IMG/VR virus record: IMGVR_UViG_3300006919_000487
Location: 1 to 22,924 of that record
Direction: 5' to 3' (one strand)
Source of the DNA: a virus
Length of the DNA stretch: 22,924 nt
The notes below the pieces were generated by a model, which ran no database searches, had not been told where the DNA came from, and saw nothing but the letters and a program-made list of their open reading frames with translations. Position numbers and translations under genes: made by a program. This document shows positions 7,501 to 20,767 of the stretch, in pieces (the stretch's first letter is position 1; every line of letters starts with the position of its first letter).

Positions 7501-7587
7501 CTAGTCGTCCTCGCCCCAACGGGCGAAGAACGCTAGGATGATAGACACGATGACCAGCAGACCACCGTAGATTTGAATCGGGTCCAT
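7501..7587 (-). CDS. Tiny membrane protein, 28 aa
   Basis: The frame from ATG 7587 to TAG 7503-7501 encodes MDPIQIYGGLLVIVSI, then ILAFFARWGEDD: a single membrane span with a charged C-terminal end. The start overlaps the stop of the preceding gene by one base (TGATG), matching the coupling used throughout this phage. It is short enough for annotation pipelines to skip. Possible roles include a regulator of lysis or of a host membrane protein; nothing in the sequence decides between them. Confidence 0.6.
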   Translation of the reverse strand: MDPIQIYGGLLVIVSIILAFFARWGEDD

Positions 7588-8456
7588 CAGTTGAACTCCG
7601 CATCCTGCTCGACCACACCCAACGCCTTGAGTTGATCGAACACCCAACGCTCCGCATCGGCCGGATCACCATGAGTGAACCAACGCTGAGACAAGTCCAT
7701 CGTCAGATCGGCACCAACAATGTTGGCGTGCTGAATGGCAGTCACCGTACCGTAGCCGCCACCTTTCTGGAAACCGTAACGCTTGCGGATGCTGGGGGAC
7801 TCACCCTCCTGGAGAGCGAAGATCAACCGGCGCAGCCACGACGGGTTACCCAGGGCGAACTCGACCGCCGACTCGTCCATGATCGTACCGGCAGAATGCA
7901 ACCGGGTCAGGACCGACCAGGCTTCACTGTCCAGGTTCTTGCCGTTACGGGGCCGAACGCTTTCTTCGGCCCAAATCTCCAACTCGTAACCCAACGTGGC
8001 AAGGGCACGAACCAGACCGATCAGAGCCTGACCACGGGCGAACAACTGTTGGGCGGTGACCGATGACGGGATGCTGTAGCCGACAACCAGACACAAGGCA
8101 CGCTTCGAAACCTCATCCTCGTTCGGGACGAACTCAAACATGCACTCCGGTTCGCCGTCCAGATAGCGGGCGATGTCGAAACTAGCGCCCGACACGTTGT
8201 ACCGGTACTCCAGTGTGTTGTCAACGTACTTGCGGATTTTCGGCACGATACCGTCGAACCAGCGGCGCATCTCGGCGGCACCCTCGGGTGCCCAGCCGCC
8301 GAACTTAGCGAACCGGATCGCTTCCGGCAGATCGGCCGTGCCGTGCCAACCATCGGTCGGGTTGTTGCTAACCCCAGTTGAGGTTTTGTCAGCAGCAGCA
8401 GCCGCTGCGTCAATGAACTTGTGGATCGAATCGAACTGGTGGAGTGTGTACTTCAT
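7587..8456 (-). CDS. Conserved phage protein (289 aa) paired with the AAA+ ATPase
   Basis: I place the start at ATG 8456 (MKYTLHQFDSIHKFIDAA), which has AGAAAG 8 bases upstream. The open frame extends further up to 8597, but through a GC-rich terminator and so is not coding there. The N-terminal part has GWHGTADLPEAIRFAKFG followed by WAPEGAAEM; the middle has SGASFDIARYLDGEPECM and RGQALIGLVRALATLGYELE. These blocks resemble an uncharacterised phage family often found beside CobS/MoxR-like ATPases. The RGxALIxLVxAL-x-LGYELE block recalls the first strand and helix of a von Willebrand A-like fold, which would fit a CobT-type partner for the ATPase. That partnership is inference from neighbourhood. 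Confidence 0.75.
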   Translation of the reverse strand: MKYTLHQFDSIHKFIDAAAAAADKTSTGVSNNPTDGWHGTADLPEAIRFAKFGGWAPEGAAEMRRWFDGIVPKIRKYVDNTLEYRYNVSGASFDIARYLDGEPECMFEFVPNEDEVSKRALCLVVGYSIPSSVTAQQLFARGQALIGLVRALATLGYELEIWAEESVRPRNGKNLDSEAWSVLTRLHSAGTIMDESAVEFALGNPSWLRRLIFALQEGESPSIRKRYGFQKGGGYGTVTAIQHANIVGADLTMDLSQRWFTHGDPADAERWVFDQLKALGVVEQDAEFN

Positions 8457-8498
8457 GATCGTAACTTTCTGTGAGTGTTGAATGTTGCAGATTGAAAT

Positions 8499-8540
8499 CC
8501 GGGCCGGGGGGCCGGAGGGATTGGAAACCCCCCGACCCGG
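8499..8540 (-). terminator. GC-rich hairpin after AAA+ gene
   Basis: CCGGGYCGGGGGG-type arms (13 pairs, one G-U) with a 16-base loop lie 11 bases after the AAA+ stop on the minus strand. No U-tract follows. A degenerate palindrome copy (TTGCAGATTGAAA, 8485-8497) lies right behind it, in the leader of the downstream 289-aa gene. Confidence 0.6.
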
Positions 8541-8550
8541 AAACCCTAGA

Positions 8551-9918
8551 TCAAGACCAAGCCTTGATCTTCGCCTTCTGGTCGTCGTCCAGCGCACCGA
8601 GGAACGTCATCTCGCACGCCTCACCGATGGTGAACGCACCGTCACCCGGTGCGATCATCTTCGCACCGATCACCGAGTCTCGCATGGTGACGAAATGCTT
8701 GATACCCAACGCATCGACGGCACGCCGGGCGTGACGGACCTGGGTCAACCAGCGGTCAGCGAGACTGTCGCCGAGCATACCGGCAACGATGGCCGTCTCC
8801 ATGCGTTCGTCAGTGTCGATGTACACCTTGGCGAACCGGTTCAGTGACGCCGGGTCCAGTTTGGCACGCCCAGCGAACTGGGCAGTCGGACCGGTCCCGA
8901 GCGTGTTGGCGGTGGCCAACATGCCGAAGTCGAGATGGGCGAGATGCTTGCCGTTCCCGAACTCGAAGATACCGTTCGCCAGCGCACTGTTCAACCCGGC
9001 GACGATGGCCGGGTTGGAGTTGTCCAACTCGTCCCCGACGTACAAGCCACCGGACGTGAACGCCCGATAGAACGCCGTTTCCTTGAACTCGCCGGTGCCA
9101 GGGATCATGTACCCCTTGATATCGGACATCGGTGACATCGGGTTGAACCCTTCGATCTCGACGGATCGGCCGAGAGCCTCACCGACCTGAAGGCACATAT
9201 GCGACTTGCCGGTCCCTGGCGGGCCAGGCAGGTAGACGTGAGTCCCCCGGGCCACCAGTCGGAGCACGGTGTCGAACTTGCTGTGGCGAACCTCGGGGAT
9301 CTTGCCCTTGACCTTGCCGTCGATCTTCACGAACGACGGCTTCGCCTTGCCACCCGTGCCACCCTTCGGGATCGACTCCCGAACCTGGTTGCCAGCCTGC
9401 CGGGCACGAGACTCGGCAATGTCGATCACCCGAGGCTTGAACGTCTCCCAGAGACTGTCGGCGAACTTGTCACCGAGCGATTCATCCTCGCCAGGATCGT
9501 GTTCAAACTGAAAATCCATGTCATCCTTTCCGTCCGATTCGTCGTCCGACTGTTCCTGGTCAGACTGGTCGCCCGACTCACCATCGGACTCGTCACCCGA
9601 CTCACCATCCTGGTCGGACTCACCGTCGGACTGGCCGTCGGACTGGCCGTCGGCATCGCCGTCGGCATCCTGCCCGTCCCGGTCCGACTCGTCGCCCGAC
9701 CCACCGTAGCCGAACCCATCCCCGAAATCCTCCGGGGTGAGATGCAGCACCGTGGCTTTCGGCATGTCGGCCACCGTATCGAACCCGTTACGGTCAGCAG
9801 CCCGGGCCGCAGCCTTGCACTCGTCCATCGTCCACTCGTCCATCGGGACGGTGAACCCTTCCTGATCGACACCGTTCACGATGCCGTTGTAGGTCTTGTG
9901 AATCGTATTGAAACGCAT
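8551..9918 (-). CDS. AAA+ ATPase, MoxR/CobS-like
   Basis: The 455-residue protein has Walker A GPPGTGKS (232-239), Walker B LYVGDELDN (292-300), a sensor-1-like MLATANTLG (333-341) and an arginine-finger-like NRF (360-362), as in CobS/MoxR-type ATPases. These work as hexameric chaperones with a VWA-domain partner. Residues about 73-133 form an extremely acidic Asp/Gly/Ser/Gln linker made of short repeats (GQSDGQSDGESDQDGESGDE and similar). The linker separates a small N-terminal region from the ATPase core and is reminiscent of the acidic segment of CobT-like proteins. The start ATG has GGAGGG 7 bases upstream. Its leader carries a palindrome copy and four 11-bp repeats. Role in the phage unknown; remodelling of a large complex is the usual family job. 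Confidence 0.88.
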   Translation of the reverse strand: MRFNTIHKTYNGIVNGVDQEGFTVPMDEWTMDECKAAARAADRNGFDTVADMPKATVLHLTPEDFGDGFGYGGSGDESDRDGQDADGDADGQSDGQSDGESDQDGESGDESDGESGDQSDQEQSDDESDGKDDMDFQFEHDPGEDESLGDKFADSLWETFKPRVIDIAESRARQAGNQVRESIPKGGTGGKAKPSFVKIDGKVKGKIPEVRHSKFDTVLRLVARGTHVYLPGPPGTGKSHMCLQVGEALGRSVEIEGFNPMSPMSDIKGYMIPGTGEFKETAFYRAFTSGGLYVGDELDNSNPAIVAGLNSALANGIFEFGNGKHLAHLDFGMLATANTLGTGPTAQFAGRAKLDPASLNRFAKVYIDTDERMETAIVAGMLGDSLADRWLTQVRHARRAVDALGIKHFVTMRDSVIGAKMIAPGDGAFTIGEACEMTFLGALDDDQKAKIKAWS

Positions 9919-12803: not shown

Positions 12804-12839
12804 CGGACAACACTTGGGGTGTTGTCCGTTTTTGTTTTT
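12804..12839 (+). terminator. Tandem hairpin 3, canonical terminator
   Basis: CGGACAACAC stem with a 5-base loop, followed at once by TTTTTGTTTTT. This is the best intrinsic terminator of the array and is oriented rightward. Confidence 0.8.
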
Positions 12840-12897: not shown

Positions 12898-12927
12898 TGT
12901 TGTTTGGTGAGATGAAAGGTGTTTGTT

Positions 12928-13515
12928 GTGGGTGAACCTGGCAGGAAGAAGCCTGGCGTGTTGGTGGATGTGTATTCTAAGTCTGAGACTTCTTTGAAGT
13001 TGAAGAATGGTCGTCCGTCTAAGGCGTCTTTGCAGCGTGCTAAGCGTGATTTGAATGATCGGCAGGTTTCGTATGCTGCGTGGCTGGCTACGCCTGAGGC
13101 GTACCGCCAGCCTCGTACGAGGACTGAGTTGGCTAAGCAGTTGGGTGTTTCTGAGTATACGTTGTGGCGTTGGGATCAGAATCCGAAGATTGTGTTGGCG
13201 TCTCGGTGGATGGTGTTGCAGCGTGCTGGTGATCCTGGTCGGGTTGGTCAGATCATTGATTTTTTGCATGAGGTGGCTACTGATGAGGTGCAGACGACGA
13301 AGTATCGTTTGGAGGCTGCACGGGAGTATTTGGCTGCTGTTGGTGTGAAGCAGATGTGGAAGAATCCTGAGCCTGAGTTGTTGCAGGTGACTGAGTTGTC
13401 GGACATTGATTTGGAGATGTTGTCTGATGATGAGGTTTGGGAGATGTATAATGAGTTGGCTGGGAATAACGGTGATCCGTTGAAGGAAGCTGACGATGAG
13501 GGTTCTGTTGAATGA
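12928..13515 (+). CDS. Terminase small subunit-like protein
   Basis: The start is the GTG at 12928, 8 bases after GAAAGG; the GTG at 12919 overlaps that site. The 195-residue product has a Lys/Arg-rich N-terminus and a helix-turn-helix at about 63-85 (RTRTELAKQLGVSEYTLWRW), the DNA-recognition motif of many small terminase subunits. A helical middle (YRLEAAREYLAAVGVKQMW) and an acidic tail (SDDEVWEMYNEL) for partner contacts follow. It opens the late operon, two genes before the large terminase. Function: recognise the packaging site and regulate the large subunit. Class assigned by HTH plus position. From here on, codons are strongly T- and G-ending (Leu as TTG), unlike the leftward arm. Confidence 0.75.
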   Translation: MGEPGRKKPGVLVDVYSKSETSLKLKNGRPSKASLQRAKRDLNDRQVSYAAWLATPEAYRQPRTRTELAKQLGVSEYTLWRWDQNPKIVLASRWMVLQRAGDPGRVGQIIDFLHEVATDEVQTTKYRLEAAREYLAAVGVKQMWKNPEPELLQVTELSDIDLEMLSDDEVWEMYNELAGNNGDPLKEADDEGSVE

Positions 13516-14243
13516 TTTTTTATTTGGGTGTTGATAGATGTCGTTTTTTGTGGACGGTTGAGAATATCCCGATGTTTATGTCCCATCGTGTTTTGAGAAG
13601 GCAGAAGTCGTGGAGGCGGGCGGCTTCTCGATGGTGCTTAGATTCTGGTGGGTTTAGTGAGTTGTCTCAGTTTGGTGAGTGGACTATTAGTCCAGAGGAC
13701 TATGTTGAGGCTATCTATAAGTATCAGGATCAGATTGGTAGTATGGATTGGTGTGCTATCCAGGATTGGATGTGTGAGCCGACGATAAGGAAGTTTACTG
13801 GTAAGTCAGTTGAGGAACATCAGCGTTTGACGGTTGACAACTTTTTGTTATTGACTGAGATGGCTCCTGATTTGCCGTTCATTCCCATCCTTCAGGGATG
13901 GGAATTGCAGGATTATGTGTCGATGGTAGACATGTACGCTGATTCTGGTGTTGATTTGTTTCAGTTTGAAACTGTTGGTTTAGGGTCAGTGTGCCGCAGG
14001 CAGTCAACTAAAAGTGTTTTGGAGATTGTGAAAGAATTGCAGCCGTTGAAGTTGCATGGTTTTGGTGTGAAGGGTGATGGTTTGTCGCTGTACGGCGATT
14101 TTTTGACTTCTGCTGATTCTATGGCTTGGTCGTATTCTGGAAGGTTTGTGCAGCCTTGTCCTGAGACTGGATTGGCAAGTTGTCAACATTGCTTGCATTA
14201 TGCTTTGGAGTGGAGAGAGAAGTTTGTCAATGAAGGTTCGTAA
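13512..14243 (+). CDS. dpdA: DpdA-like 7-deazaguanine DNA transglycosylase (TGT superfamily)
   Basis: The 243-residue protein has the blocks I associate with DpdA-family proteins: WCLDSGGFSEL (41-51), DWCAIQDWMCEP (79-90), LPFIPILQGW (121-130), VGLGSVCRRQ (155-164), LHGFGVK (181-187), TSADSMAWS (199-207), and a zinc-site-like CPETGLASCQHCLHYA (C216, C224, C227, H229). DpdA proteins are relatives of tRNA-guanine transglycosylase that exchange guanine in DNA for a 7-deazaguanine such as preQ0. The Asp of SADSMAWS is the likely nucleophile (inference from TGT). The ATG overlaps the small terminase stop (ATGA), and the end overlaps the large terminase start by 14 bp. No preQ0 synthesis genes are in this window; they may lie outside it or the host may supply the base. 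Confidence 0.88.
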   Translation: MIFYLGVDRCRFLWTVENIPMFMSHRVLRRQKSWRRAASRWCLDSGGFSELSQFGEWTISPEDYVEAIYKYQDQIGSMDWCAIQDWMCEPTIRKFTGKSVEEHQRLTVDNFLLLTEMAPDLPFIPILQGWELQDYVSMVDMYADSGVDLFQFETVGLGSVCRRQSTKSVLEIVKELQPLKLHGFGVKGDGLSLYGDFLTSADSMAWSYSGRFVQPCPETGLASCQHCLHYALEWREKFVNEGS

Positions 14244-15882
14244 GACTGTTAGTGCTTCTGAGGGTATTACTGAGCAGAAGTTGCAGAATGAAATCCAGTT
14301 CAGGTCTTGGTTTCCTGCTGAGGCTGTGTTGGATGCCCGTAACCGCATTCCTGATGAGGAATGCGATAGGCTGGTTGAGGGTTTCCGGTTGTTTTGTTTG
14401 CAGGCGATCCGTATCAAGGTGCCTGGTTCCAGGGTGCCGTTTGAGTTGCGTGAGGCGCAGTTGGATACGATTCGGGCTTGGATTCAGAATCGGTATACGA
14501 TTACGTTGAAGGCCCGTCAGATTGGGTTTTCTACGTTGGCTGCTGCTTTTGCGTTGTGGGTGGCTTTGGGTGGTTCTGATCGGCAGATTTATATGTTGTC
14601 TCGCCGTGAGAAGGACAGTATCAGTTTGTTGAATAAGGTGAAGTTTGCGTATAAGTCGATGCCTGAGTGGGTTCGTCAGCGTTCTTCGCATGTGTTGGAT
14701 CGAACGAATCTTAGGATGTCGTTCGATAATGATTCGTTTATTGAGTCGTCTCCGACTGCTTCTGATCCGATTCGTGGTGAGACTGCGTTTCTGGTGATTG
14801 TGGACGAGTGGGCGTCGTTTCAGAATGAGGAAGAAGCGTGGGCTGCTATTGAGCCTGTGACGGATGTTGGTGGGCGGTGTGTTGGGCTTTCAACAGCGAA
14901 GGGCGAGGGCACGTTTTTCCACAGGTTGTGGGTGGGGGCGACAACCAGTAGCAATAGTTTCGTGCCGGTGTTTCATCCGTGGTCGGCGGTGCCGGGTCGT
15001 GACGCTAAATGGTATGAGGACAAGAAGGCGAATATGGAGCTGTGGCAGCTCCATCAGGAGTATCCGTGTTCGCCGGAGGAAGCGTTCATTGGTTCAGGTA
15101 ATCCGTATTTCGATTTGGAACGTTTGCGAGAGATGTCTCTCAAGGAAGGGATTGGTCGGTATTTCATTCAGATTTCTTCTCAGGGTGGGAATCGGTTTGA
15201 ACTTACGGAGGCATCAGATGATGGGCCTTTGGTGGTCTTTGAGAAACCGAAACGGTCTGAGACGTATGTGATTGGGGCTGACGTTGCTCAGGGTTTGGAT
15301 CATGGTGACTGGTCTGTTGCGTATGTGATGGAAGCAAAATCTGGGGATATTGTGGCTGTGTTCCGTGGGAAGCCTGAACCAGATTATTTTGGTGAGATTA
15401 TTGCGGCTTTGGGGTACATGTACAATTATGCTTTGGTGTGCCCGGAGGTGAACAACCACGGTCGTACAACCGTCGATACGCTTCGACGGTTGAAGTACAG
15501 TCGGATTTATCGTCGGCGTACGAAACTGAAAACGATTGAGTCTCCTACTGAGACGATTGGCTGGTTGACTACGCATGGGAATAAGGTTGATGTGATCAAC
15601 CAGTTGTCTCAGTGGTTGCGTGTCCATAATGTGCCGCATGAGCCGACTGTTGCGGAGTTGAAAACGTTTGTGCGTGATCAGAGGGGTGAACGTATCAAGT
15701 TGCATGGTTCACCTCATGATGACTGTGTGATGGCTTTGGCTATTACGATTGAGGCACGAAAGTATGCTGTGATGAACAATATTGGGTCGGTTATCCCGAA
15801 GGATGTTCCTGGCAGTATTGATTGGTGGGCTAAGAAGTTGACTGGGCCGTCACGGAAACGTCGTGTCGGCCCGATGATCTAG
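14230..15882 (+). CDS. terL: Terminase large subunit
   Basis: The start ATG at 14230 lies inside the end of the DpdA-like gene, with GGAGAGAGA upstream; longer frames upstream overlap that gene too far. The 550-residue protein has the ATPase motifs KARQIGFST (94-102, terminase-type Walker A) and LVIVDE (188-193, Walker B plus catalytic Glu), then GLSTAKGEGTFF (219-230). The C-terminal nuclease has VIGADVAQG (D351), CPEVNNHG (E406) and HDDCVMAL (D497, D498). It powers DNA translocation into the procapsid and cuts the concatemer. Length is normal for the family. A terminator hairpin overlaps its stop codon. Confidence 0.95.
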   Translation: MKVRKTVSASEGITEQKLQNEIQFRSWFPAEAVLDARNRIPDEECDRLVEGFRLFCLQAIRIKVPGSRVPFELREAQLDTIRAWIQNRYTITLKARQIGFSTLAAAFALWVALGGSDRQIYMLSRREKDSISLLNKVKFAYKSMPEWVRQRSSHVLDRTNLRMSFDNDSFIESSPTASDPIRGETAFLVIVDEWASFQNEEEAWAAIEPVTDVGGRCVGLSTAKGEGTFFHRLWVGATTSSNSFVPVFHPWSAVPGRDAKWYEDKKANMELWQLHQEYPCSPEEAFIGSGNPYFDLERLREMSLKEGIGRYFIQISSQGGNRFELTEASDDGPLVVFEKPKRSETYVIGADVAQGLDHGDWSVAYVMEAKSGDIVAVFRGKPEPDYFGEIIAALGYMYNYALVCPEVNNHGRTTVDTLRRLKYSRIYRRRTKLKTIESPTETIGWLTTHGNKVDVINQLSQWLRVHNVPHEPTVAELKTFVRDQRGERIKLHGSPHDDCVMALAITIEARKYAVMNNIGSVIPKDVPGSIDWWAKKLTGPSRKRRVGPMI

Positions 15883-15898
15883 CATCGGGACACTTTTT
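15863..15898 (+). terminator. Terminator overlapping the terL stop codon
   Basis: GTGT, 3-base bulge, CCCGATG, loop ATCTAG (which contains the stop codon TAG), CATCGGG, ACAC, TTTTT. An intrinsic terminator whose stem begins in the last codons of terL. Confidence 0.65.
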
Positions 15899-16008: not shown

Positions 16009-16341
16009 ATGAGCGTTCATTACATCGAATGTGACAACTGTGGTCGTGAACTTCCTATCGGGAAGTTTGATTTGTCTGGACGGGACCCGGGCACTTGTTT
16101 CAAGTGCCGGGTTTCAACTATTAGTTTCACGAATCCGATCAAAACCGGTCAGGGTGATGATGCTTGGCGTCATGACACGATTCGTGATTATCAGCGCCGT
16201 CAGGTCGCTGAGGCTGCCGAGCAGGGCCATGAGGCTATCCCGGCTTGGCATACCACTGGGACGGGAACAACTAGTGGTTCGATGCAACGTTTGTCTGATC
16301 ATCTAAATAAGTCGGAACAGGTGAAGTCTGATGCCAAGTAA
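16009..16341 (+). CDS. Small Zn-finger protein, 110 aa
   Basis: Of two adjacent ATGs, 16009 has the better spacing (6 bases from GAAAG). The N-terminus holds two Cys pairs, CDNC (C8, C11) and CFKC (C30, C33), the spacing of a zinc ribbon. An Arg-rich helix (RHDTIRDYQRRQVAEAAEQG) and a Ser/Thr/Gly-rich tail follow. The gene overlaps the portal start by 11 bp, so translation is coupled. Its place between terminase and portal suggests a packaging or HNH-free accessory role, perhaps DNA or RNA binding. No specific family is recognised. Confidence 0.75.
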   Translation: MSVHYIECDNCGRELPIGKFDLSGRDPGTCFKCRVSTISFTNPIKTGQGDDAWRHDTIRDYQRRQVAEAAEQGHEAIPAWHTTGTGTTSGSMQRLSDHLNKSEQVKSDAK

Positions 16342-18250
16342 TTATGATGCGTTCATTGACCAGGAGTCGTCTGGTGATGGCTATGGTCGTGATAACGCTA
16401 AGAAGAAACTTGGTCGTCATCGGGCGAACGTGCAGAACTCTTTGCGTCTCCGTAAGGATTCTGAGTGGGATGACAAGTGGTCTAACCTGATTAAGATTTA
16501 TAGCAACAAGTATCCTTGGGATGAACTTGGTTCATATGAGGATATTGTTGTGCCGAATATGGCGTTTTCGACTGTGAACGTGATTGTTCCGTCGATTGCT
16601 GTGAACATTCCGAAGGTGAATGTTACTGCTAAGAATCCGAAGGATCGTGAAACTGCTGCTGTTGTTGAAGCGGTGGTGAATCATCATTGGCGTGAGTTTG
16701 ATGTCCAGGACGAAATCCGTGCTGCCGCTAAGGATTTCGTTATTGTTGGTCACGGCTGGGTGAAGATCACTTGGGAAACTAAGATGGCTGACCGTGAGTT
16801 GTCTGTTGACGAATGGCAGGACGCTGTTCGTGAACAGGTGATGATGCAGCAGCAGTTGGCTCAGTCTGGTGTGTTGGAAGATGATCTTCCGACAATGGAT
16901 GAGGTTATTGAATCTGTTCCTCGTACTGTTGAGGAAACGGTGAAAGACGCACCTTTGGTGCGTCGTATCAGCCCGTTCGATATGGTTGTTGATCCTGATG
17001 CTTTGCGTATGCAGGATTTGCGTTGGATTGCTCAGCGTTCGTTTGTGCCTATTCAGGTTGCCCGTGAAAATGAGGATTGGCAGCCTTCGGCTCGACGCAA
17101 GTTGAAGGCTACGGTGTTGTCGGATGCTCGGGATGATGTGAAGGTTGATGATTCGCATCGTTCTAAGGATGCTGGTTTCGTTGTTGTCTACGAGTATTAT
17201 GATTTGATCAACGAAACTGTTTGTGTTTTCGCTGATGGGTGCGAAGAATTTTTGCAGAAGCCTTCTCAGTCTCCGTTCCCTGGTGTGCATCCGTTTGTGT
17301 TCATGCCGAACTATGAGGTCCCTGAACGGTTTTATCCGATTGGTGATTTGGAAACCATTTATGGTTTGCAGCTAGAGTTGGCTATGACCCGTACCGCTAT
17401 GATCAATGATCGTAAGCATGGTAAGCGGATTCATATGGTGCGTTCTGCGGCTATCGGCCCGGAAGGTATGCAGGCTCTTGAGTCTGGTGACGATGATGTC
17501 CTGATTGATGTGTTGGAGGATCGTCCGTTTGGGGATGTGTTGCAGTCGGTTCAGCCGACTGCGTTGCATCCTGAGTGGTATACCCAGTCGGATATGATTC
17601 TGAACGACATCAACATGATTTCTGGTGTCACTGAGTATTCCCGTGGGCAGGCGGCGAATATTCGCCGTACTGCCACGGAAGCCGGTTTGATTCAGGATGC
17701 TGCTAATGCTCGTTCTTCGGACAAGTTGTATAAGATTGAGCAGGCTATGGGCCGGGTCGCTGAGCGTATGATCAAACTTTCTCAGGTGTTTATGGACACT
17801 GAGGATGTTGCTCGGGTGATTGACGAGAATAAGGTTGTTAGTTGGGTGCGTTATGATCGCACTGTGTTGCAGGGCGATTTTGTGTTTGAGGTTGAGGCTG
17901 GTTCTTCTCAACCTCATAATGAGTCGTTCCGTCGTCAGTCTGCGTTGCAGTTGATGGATGTGTTGTCTCCGATGTTGGGTTCGGGGCTGTTGAACGATCA
18001 GAAGATTATTGAGCATGTGTTGCGTTTCGGGTTTGGCATCAAGAATGCGGATCAAATGATGGGTCCGGGTCCGCAGCCTCCGATGCCGGAAGCAGCACCT
18101 CCGGGTATGCCACCTGAAGGTATGCCTCCGGAGATGCCTCCGGGGATGCCGCCAGAAATGGCGGGCATCCCTCCTGAAATGCTTGCTCAAATGATGGGCG
18201 GTGGCGGTATGCCACCGCAAGGTGTTCCAGGTCCGATGCCTGGAATGTAA
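16331..18250 (+). CDS. Portal protein
   Basis: The 639-residue protein follows the terminase and precedes the scaffold and capsid genes. It has portal-like features: an N-terminal region with long helices and YPWDELGSYEDIVVPNMAFS, an inserted coiled-coil-like segment (QMMQQ-type, about 170-205), the block RISPFDMVVDPDA, and LETIYGLQLELAMTRTAMIN, which fits the long helix of the portal core. SGVTEYSRGQAANIRRTATE is typical of large podo/sipho-type portals. The last about 65 residues are a Pro/Met/Gly-rich tail (PPGMPPEGMPPEMPPGMPPE), probably flexible. Twelve subunits form the channel for DNA entry and exit. Family assignment rests on length, order and these blocks. Confidence 0.85.
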   Translation: MPSNYDAFIDQESSGDGYGRDNAKKKLGRHRANVQNSLRLRKDSEWDDKWSNLIKIYSNKYPWDELGSYEDIVVPNMAFSTVNVIVPSIAVNIPKVNVTAKNPKDRETAAVVEAVVNHHWREFDVQDEIRAAAKDFVIVGHGWVKITWETKMADRELSVDEWQDAVREQVMMQQQLAQSGVLEDDLPTMDEVIESVPRTVEETVKDAPLVRRISPFDMVVDPDALRMQDLRWIAQRSFVPIQVARENEDWQPSARRKLKATVLSDARDDVKVDDSHRSKDAGFVVVYEYYDLINETVCVFADGCEEFLQKPSQSPFPGVHPFVFMPNYEVPERFYPIGDLETIYGLQLELAMTRTAMINDRKHGKRIHMVRSAAIGPEGMQALESGDDDVLIDVLEDRPFGDVLQSVQPTALHPEWYTQSDMILNDINMISGVTEYSRGQAANIRRTATEAGLIQDAANARSSDKLYKIEQAMGRVAERMIKLSQVFMDTEDVARVIDENKVVSWVRYDRTVLQGDFVFEVEAGSSQPHNESFRRQSALQLMDVLSPMLGSGLLNDQKIIEHVLRFGFGIKNADQMMGPGPQPPMPEAAPPGMPPEGMPPEMPPGMPPEMAGIPPEMLAQMMGGGGMPPQGVPGPMPGM

Positions 18251-19801: not shown

Positions 19802-20767
19802 ATGGCTATGGATAACATTATTGGTACTACTCTGGAGCGTTACTTCACTTCGGGGAAGGCCACTGACAACATTTTTGCTCGTACTGCTGTTCTGGACTTC
19901 CTGAAGCGGCGTGCGAAGCTTGACGCTCAGGGTGGACGTAATGCGGTGCATCCGGTTATGGGTGCCCGTAACAGCACGTTCCAGAACTACTCTGGTTACG
20001 ATACGCTTACCCCGGCGGTCGATGAAATCATCGACACTGCCGAGTACGACTGGAAGCAGTCGGCTATTTATGTTCCGATCAGCGGTCTGGAGCAGGCGAA
20101 GAACAGCGGTGATAAGGCTGTTATCAATCTGCTGAAGGCTAAGACGATGAACGCTGAGACCACGGCTGCCGAGGTCTTTGAGGAAATGTTCTTCCTGGCT
20201 GATGGTGCTGGTACTGACAACGGGCAGACGACTTACACGCCTTCGGCTAAGGAGTGGGCTGGTCTGAAGCTGTGGACGAATAACTCGTCCACTGATGTTG
20301 GTGGGATTGATGGTACGGCTGATACTTGGTGGCAGGCTTCGGTCGCCACTTCGGTTGGTGCCCTCACCCTTCCTGTTCTGTCGAACAAGTACAACTCGGT
20401 GTCGTATGGTACTGACAAGTGCGACTTTGAGGTGACGACTCAGGCTCTGTATGAGGGTTATGAGGAACTGCTTCAGGCTCAGCAGCGGTTCACTGATGCG
20501 AGCACTGCGAAGGCTGGTTTCGATAACCTGCTCCATAAGGGTGGCGTTGTTGTCTGGTCGGATTACTGCCCGTCTGGCGAGTGGTACTTCCTGAACAGCA
20601 ACCATGTGAAGCTGTCGGTGCTTGATTCGAAGTGGATGAAGTTCAACGGTTTCGTGCAGCCTTACGATAAGGATGCCGAGTATGGTCTGATTCTGTGCTA
20701 CGGCACGTTTGCGACTGATTCTCGTCGTTCGATTGGTAAGCTGTCTGGAGTTACGGCTCCTGCCTGA
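19802..20767 (+). CDS. Major capsid protein
   Basis: The ATG at 19802 has GGGAG 6 bases upstream. The 321-residue protein (MAMDNIIGTTLERYFTSGKA) follows the scaffold gene and has blocks typical of HK97-fold capsid proteins of this size: FARTAVLDFLKRRAKLDAQG, AEYDWKQSAIYVPISGLEQA with an aromatic E-loop-like part, CDFEVTTQALYEGYEELLQA, and a C-terminal part ending GKLSGVTAPA. Codons are C-ending with Leu as CTG and Lys as AAG, distinct from the scaffold gene, as expected for the most abundant virion protein. A strong terminator follows. Fold is inferred; role is secure from order and codon bias. Confidence 0.9.
   Translation: MAMDNIIGTTLERYFTSGKATDNIFARTAVLDFLKRRAKLDAQGGRNAVHPVMGARNSTFQNYSGYDTLTPAVDEIIDTAEYDWKQSAIYVPISGLEQAKNSGDKAVINLLKAKTMNAETTAAEVFEEMFFLADGAGTDNGQTTYTPSAKEWAGLKLWTNNSSTDVGGIDGTADTWWQASVATSVGALTLPVLSNKYNSVSYGTDKCDFEVTTQALYEGYEELLQAQQRFTDASTAKAGFDNLLHKGGVVVWSDYCPSGEWYFLNSNHVKLSVLDSKWMKFNGFVQPYDKDAEYGLILCYGTFATDSRRSIGKLSGVTAPA

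What the first reader, a model, noticed from the sequence alone, without database searches (positions are those of the whole stretch)
13512..14243. DpdA-like DNA base-modifying enzyme between the terminase genes
The protein shows DSGGF, GLGSVCRR, SADSMAWS and a C-C-C-H zinc-site pattern, which match the DpdA branch of the TGT superfamily. Known phage DpdA proteins insert 7-deazaguanines that protect DNA from restriction. Here the gene is locked into the packaging operon by overlaps with both terminase genes, implying that modification is timed with late expression or packaging. No preQ0 synthesis gene is visible.
Basis: partly seen in the sequence, partly recalled or inferred. Interest (0 to 1): 0.75.

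Follow-up and report, generated by a model that had tools for sequence, protein, structure and literature searches.

The report
Salvage-type DpdA in phage packaging operon
A phage that probably infects actinobacteria carries, inserted between its two DNA-packaging genes, a member of a known but untested branch of enzymes that swap guanine in DNA for a 7-deazaguanine; its genome makes none of the needed base, and relatives of the enzyme often carry a transporter that could import it.

Summary
Confirmed: 13512-14243 (+) encodes a 243-aa DpdA (PF23859, 257 bits; cutoff 27). Its model (pLDDT 96) matches the solved DNA preQ0 insertase DpdA (7ui4) best, tied with archaeal tRNA-guanine transglycosylase. 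All residues invariant across 110 relatives are intact; D44, H182 and D202 align with phage DpdAs of proven lineages. It overlaps terS (4 bp) and terL (14 bp). A 99.6%-identical contig closes the genome (~38.7 kb): no QueC, QueD, YhhQ, or detectable QueE/FolE. Two related phages have terS abutting terL, so dpdA is an insertion. The branch is 'DpdA singleton'; mycobacteriophage Orion, a singleton phage, had unmodified DNA in a preQ0-less host (PMC6884629). New here: 40 of 175 loci of this branch carry a YhhQ-type preQ0 transporter next to dpdA; one has queE-queD-queC-dpdA. dpdA lies by terL in several further phage lineages, and the preQ0 operon abuts terL in a Rosebush-genus phage. Best reading: a DNA guanine transglycosylase made with the terminase, modifying DNA before packaging when the host supplies the base. 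Family and fold are near certain; activity, base, timing and protection are inferred. New member of a known kind in an unusual setting.

The parts
13512..14243 (+). dpdA: DpdA/TGT-superfamily DNA guanine transglycosylase of the PF23859 'singleton' branch (D44, D85, Q128, H182, D202 candidate active-site residues; C216/C224/C227/H229 candidate zinc ligands)
   Evidence: Pfam PF23859 257 bits, PHROG 1279 268 bits; AF2 model pLDDT 96.1, best PDB match 7ui4 DpdA; residues invariant in 110 homologues
12919..13515 (+). terS: small terminase subunit, 198 aa; last 4 bp overlap dpdA start (ATGA)
   Evidence: PHROG 7344 terminase small subunit E 8.6e-5, HTH_Tnp_1_2; 41-54% identical to the protein before terL in relatives L009 and L014
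14230..15882 (+). terL: large terminase subunit, 550 aa; ATG lies 14 bp inside dpdA
   Evidence: PHROG 2 terminase large subunit E 4.5e-34; 65% and 50% identical to terL of L014 and L009
12804..12828 (+). intrinsic-terminator-like hairpin (11 bp stem, T tract) upstream of terS
   Evidence: pattern match only (11 terminator-like sites found against 4.7 expected)
15870..15889 (+). terminator-like hairpin at the end of terL; with the one at 12804 it would bound a terS-dpdA-terL unit
   Evidence: pattern match only
16331..18250 (+). portal protein, head gene downstream, same strand (late operon context)
   Evidence: Pfam SU10_portal 71 bits, PHROG 156
19802..20767 (+). major capsid protein, same strand (late operon context)
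   Evidence: PHROG 9953 E 1.8e-49

Best explanation
The gene makes a DNA guanine transglycosylase of the DpdA singleton branch. It is translated together with the small and large terminase subunits (overlapping genes) in the late region. Working like TGT/DpdA, it would cut out guanine through a covalent enzyme-DNA intermediate (D202 nucleophile, D44 and H182 at the base pocket) and put in preQ0 or a related 7-deazaguanine, acting on finished DNA shortly before or during packaging, to mask restriction sites in the next host. As the phage genome holds no detected preQ0 synthesis or import gene, the base must come from the host or the medium, so modification should depend on the host. Shown here: family, fold, intact conserved residues, gene overlaps, insertion relative to kin, absence of precursor genes, and family-wide linkage to preQ0-type transporters. 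Inferred: catalysis, DNA rather than RNA as substrate, which base, late timing, protection.
For: Family: PF23859 257 bits, PHROG 1279. Fold: model pLDDT 96.1, pTM 0.92; best Foldseek match 7ui4 'DNA preQ0 insertase DpdA' E 1.7e-8; VIA Z 18.8 over 227 residues, archaeal TGT 18.4. Residues: D44, D85, Q128, H182, D202 invariant in 110 homologues; DSG-F, HxFG/HGWG and DSxxW motifs line up with CAjan, 9g and Ares DpdA (profile E 9e-7 for Ares). Chemistry by context: 40 of 175 family loci have a YhhQ/VUT transporter beside dpdA (Pfam Vut_1 confirmed for one); L042 has queE-queD-queC-dpdA. DNA rather than tRNA: the loci are phages, plasmids and integrating elements; 26 of 175 have a C5-cytosine methyltransferase nearby. 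Packaging setting: overlaps, insertion against relatives, parallels in L026, L036, L049/L059/L062/L083, L065, L082 and the Rosebush-genus phage Ares, where dpdA-queC-queD-queE-folE runs into terL.
Against: No PF23859 enzyme is known to me to have shown activity; Orion's DNA was unmodified (PMC6884629, in a host without the pathway; Orion's own DpdA could not be scanned here because its record is not held, but the cluster B phage Lulumae's is PF23859). Fold search cannot separate DNA from tRNA substrate (Z 18.8 against 18.4). The DpdAs of 9g, CAjan and Ares fall outside PF23859. No transporter or Que gene was found in this phage. Timing rests on gene order and hairpin patterns only.
Confidence: 0.6

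Rival explanations
1. It is a true DpdA but idle in this phage: with no precursor in phage or host it does nothing, and persists as a recently acquired cargo gene (moron).
For: No precursor genes in the closed genome; gene absent from both relatives; Orion unmodified (PMC6884629); lowest GC of the seven late-region genes compared, 44% against 50-53% (weak, GC3 not an outlier).
Against: All family-invariant residues kept on a long branch, which suggests ongoing selection; operon overlaps kept in frame; many relatives bring their own transporter.
Confidence: 0.2
2. It works on tRNA or other RNA (a phage TGT), changing host translation rather than DNA.
For: Archaeal tRNA-guanine transglycosylase is tied with DpdA in the fold comparison; PHROG name is queuine tRNA-ribosyltransferase.
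Against: Shares H182 and the DSxxW motif with DNA-acting DpdAs and has no extra RNA-binding domain (243 aa, barrel only); found on mobile DNA, in 26 of 175 loci near C5 DNA methyltransferases.
Confidence: 0.1
3. The enzyme takes a base other than preQ0 (preQ1, queuine or a new 7-deazaguanine) brought in by YhhQ-type or host transporters, giving a modification not yet seen in this branch. This is a variant of the best explanation, not exclusive of it.
For: Branch linked to transporters more than to synthesis genes; a few loci also carry a cysteine-rich GP88 protein near dpdA.
Against: L042 pairs the branch with preQ0 pathway genes (queE-queD-queC).
Confidence: 0.25

Closest known systems
Singleton DpdA of mycobacteriophages (PF23859; phage Orion group in Hutinet et al. 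2019, PMC6884629)
   Same: Same Pfam family, 45-50% identity over the full length; phages of this group lack preQ0 genes
   Different: Window gene lies between terS and terL on the same strand; in phage Lulumae it is antisense in the structural operon, in Fefferhead it lies near lysis and integration genes
Rosebush-type mycobacteriophage DpdA operon (phage Ares held here)
   Same: dpdA in one operon with, and upstream of, terL; profile match E 9e-7 with shared DSG, HGWG and DSxxW motifs; Rosebush DNA has 28% of G as dPreQ0 (PMC6884629)
   Different: Brings queC-queD-queE-folE along; DpdA is 346 aa and outside PF23859
CAjan / 9g DpdA
   Same: TGT-type motifs LDSGAF, LHAFG/VHGFG, CDSSSW
   Different: Outside PF23859; in the DNA-metabolism module with full precursor pathway
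Bacterial DpdA, DNA preQ0 insertase (PDB 7ui4)
   Same: Best structural match, 227 residues, Z 18.8
   Different: 413 aa against 243; 12% identity; part of a chromosomal dpd cluster (from general knowledge)

Membership tests
PF23859 DpdA (singleton branch) | Score above the curated cutoff over the full domain | tested here: met
   257 bits against 27, residues 3-241
PF23859 DpdA (singleton branch) | Residues invariant across the branch | tested here: met
   All 18 invariant columns present in P0001; P0001 is itself a row of the alignment
PF23859 DpdA (singleton branch) | C-H-C-C zinc-like cluster near the C-terminus | tested here: inconclusive
   Three Cys present, usual His missing, H229 possible stand-in; no coordinates examined
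DpdA / TGT superfamily | TGT (beta/alpha)8 barrel | tested here: met
   Foldseek 7ui4 E 1.7e-8, TGTs next; VIA Z 17.5-18.8 over about 228 residues
DpdA (proven DNA-modifying, 9g/CAjan type) | Conserved His (position 196 in DpdA numbering) and catalytic Asp | tested here: met
   H182 and D44/D202 line up with CAjan, 9g and Ares; that H182 is the paper's 'His196' is my reading of the alignment
DpdA (proven DNA-modifying) | 7-deazaguanine in DNA that depends on the gene | not testable with these tools
   Needs LC-MS and a deletion mutant; the singleton phage Orion was negative (PMC6884629)
Phage with its own 7-deazaguanine pathway (groups 1-2 of Hutinet 2019) | FolE, QueD, QueE, QueC in the genome | tested here: not met
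   QueC, QueD models silent in both records while ringing in controls; FolE/QueE not found by CAjan, Ares, 9g and L042 queries
DpdA plus encoded preQ0 transporter (YhhQ) | Vut_1/YhhQ gene beside dpdA | tested here: not met
   PF02592 absent from window and closed genome; present beside dpdA in 40 of 175 relatives

The most novel reading that the evidence does not exclude
PF23859 is the core of a scavenging DNA-modification module of mobile elements: a transglycosylase, in about a quarter of loci with its own 7-deazaguanine importer, that marks DNA only when the base is available; in the window and several other phage lineages it is wired into the terminase operon so that DNA is marked just before packaging.
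Probability: 0.35. Interest if true: 0.7.

Novelty: new member of a known kind. Interest (0 to 1): 0.45.

Why it matters
Phages with dpdA but no precursor genes were the largest and least understood group in the 2019 survey, which saw no correlation of the preQ0 transporter with any phage group (PMC6884629). The linkage found here (40 of 175 loci; at least 5, up to 13, gains or losses on the tree) suggests that this branch lives on imported base, which makes a direct test possible: feed preQ0 or preQ1 and look again. It would also explain Orion's negative result.

Tried and rejected
Solved structures by sequence: no relevant hit (the weak R-spondin matches are chance). NCBIfam: no family. E. 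coli TGT by profile: only the DSGGF stretch aligns, E 0.08. TerL as query in viral contigs found only the near-identical contig and one relative. TerS status of the genes before dpdA in L026 and L049/L059 could not be confirmed. Excess of dpdA next to terL over chance: 6 lineages of about 66 gives p 0.02 to 0.28 depending on the assumed number of genes and reach, so suggestive only. GP88 as a general partner: few loci, not in this phage. GC deviation as proof of recent gain: too weak. Orion and Rosebush records are not held; Lulumae and Ares used as stand-ins. Host not identified; WhiB suggests an actinobacterium.

Full report
Observation. The ORF at 13512-14243 (+) is real: 243 aa, ATG start, in one strand block with terS, terL, portal and capsid genes. 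It hits Pfam PF23859 'DpdA' with 257 bits against a cutoff of 27 and PHROG 1279 with 268 bits. 400 phage records, nearly all mycobacteriophages, hold relatives at up to 50% identity, as do 98 plasmids, at least 515 viral contigs and 194 stretches of bacterial genomes, mostly Actinomycetota among the 80 listed.

Structure and residues. A model from a 110-sequence alignment has mean pLDDT 96.1 and pTM 0.92. The best solved match is 7ui4, the DNA preQ0 insertase DpdA (Foldseek E 1.7e-8; Z 18.8, rmsd 3.4, 227 residues). Archaeal TGT follows at 18.4 and bacterial TGTs at 17.9 and below, so the fold alone does not tell DNA from tRNA as substrate. Eighteen residues are invariant in the branch and all are present. 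D44 (DSGGF), H182 (HGFG) and D202 (DSMAW) line up with the DpdAs of CAjan, 9g and the Rosebush-genus phage Ares. From general knowledge of TGTs the two aspartates correspond to the general acid/base and the nucleophile; this assignment is inferred. The zinc-like cluster is C216, C224, C227 and probably H229, whereas most of the branch uses a His between the first two cysteines.

Genome. The record is a 22,924-bp fragment. Contig IMGVR_UViG_3300006916_000015 is 99.6% identical over 19.4 kb and has an exact 123-bp terminal repeat, so it closes to about 38.7 kb and covers what the window lacks. Its other genes include a primase, RusA, a sigma-like protein and a large 1,399-aa protein. QueC, QueD and Vut_1/YhhQ models are silent in both records while ringing in positive controls; QueE and FolE were sought with CAjan, Ares, 9g and L042 proteins and not found. 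The gene is therefore a DpdA singleton.

Insertion. In the two nearest relatives, MW202803.1 and contig 3300024520_000487, terS runs straight into terL with a one-base overlap, and no PF23859 gene is found in either record. In the window 714 bp separate the two genes, filled by dpdA with a 4-bp and a 14-bp overlap. Terminator-like hairpins lie before terS and at the end of terL, and promoter-like sites do not exceed chance. One transcription unit terS-dpdA-terL is the simplest reading, not shown.

Family context. Of 175 loci with a dpdA of this branch, 40 carry a YhhQ/VUT transporter beside it, mostly upstream on the same strand within a few bases (18 of 90 viral, 21 of 80 genomic, 1 of 5 plasmid loci; 26 of the 110 dereplicated rows). 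The label needs 13 changes on the tree, at least 5 forced by well-supported branches. One locus, L042, has methyltransferase-queE-queD-queC-dpdA in a row, and L054 has queC after dpdA. C5-cytosine methyltransferases lie nearby in 26 loci and integrases or resolvases in 46. The 2019 survey stated that YhhQ showed no correlation with any group of phages (PMC6884629); I found no later paper in the library that reports this pairing, but the library is incomplete.

Terminase setting elsewhere. L026 has an overlapping dpdA-terL pair followed by a likely portal gene (by sequence, not scanned); L036 has dpdA then terL; L049, L059, L062 and L083 have dpdA, then a transporter, then terL, with a GP88 protein between in three of them; L082 has transporter-dpdA-terL; L065 has terS-terL-dpdA. 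In phage Ares the dpdA-queC-queD-queE-folE operon overlaps terL. Rosebush, of the same genus, carries dPreQ0 at 28% of G (PMC6884629). So a DNA-modification operon coupled to the terminase has a precedent in a lineage with measured modification. The excess over chance is not firm.

Function. TGT-type enzymes exchange bases in finished nucleic acid, so action late, before packaging, is chemically sensible (general knowledge). Protection from restriction is published for other DpdA types, not for this branch. Orion, a singleton phage, had no modification; its host M. smegmatis lacks the pathway (PMC6884629). I therefore hold identity as near certain, DNA base exchange with imported or host-made base as likely (0.6), and packaging-timed modification as a reasonable but untested idea.

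Noticed in passing
L042:3244-6798: C5 methyltransferase-queE-queD-queC-dpdA cassette in a viral contig whose terL profile-matches the window's: the only fetched locus where this DpdA branch sits in a near-full preQ0 cluster.
   Followed up: partly
L036:31-717, L059:2038-2787, L062:1523-2272, L083:1664-2413, L003:4029-4883: Cysteine-rich GP88-family protein (PF17338) beside or near dpdA in a few phages, in three of them as dpdA-YhhQ-GP88-terL; role unknown.
   Followed up: partly
L023:3872-4654: Rhizobium phage RHph_TM3_3_3: an annotated attachment site (attL) lies inside its dpdA relative, next to two DNA methyltransferases.
   Followed up: no
window:7587-9918 (-): MoxR/CobS-like AAA ATPase (8551-9918) next to a DUF7192 protein (7587-8597), a possible chaperone-type pair.
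   Followed up: no
window:2988-3443 (-): Pyrimidine dimer DNA glycosylase (PF03013), a UV-repair gene.
   Followed up: no
window:4566-4964 (-): WhiB-like regulator, pointing to an actinobacterial host.
   Followed up: no
window:22400-22924: Repetitive sequence at the window's end (many partial matches to the longer contig), likely where the assembly broke.
   Followed up: no
L101:5995-6753: A dpdA relative that has lost the whole zinc-like cluster but keeps the invariant catalytic residues.
   Followed up: no
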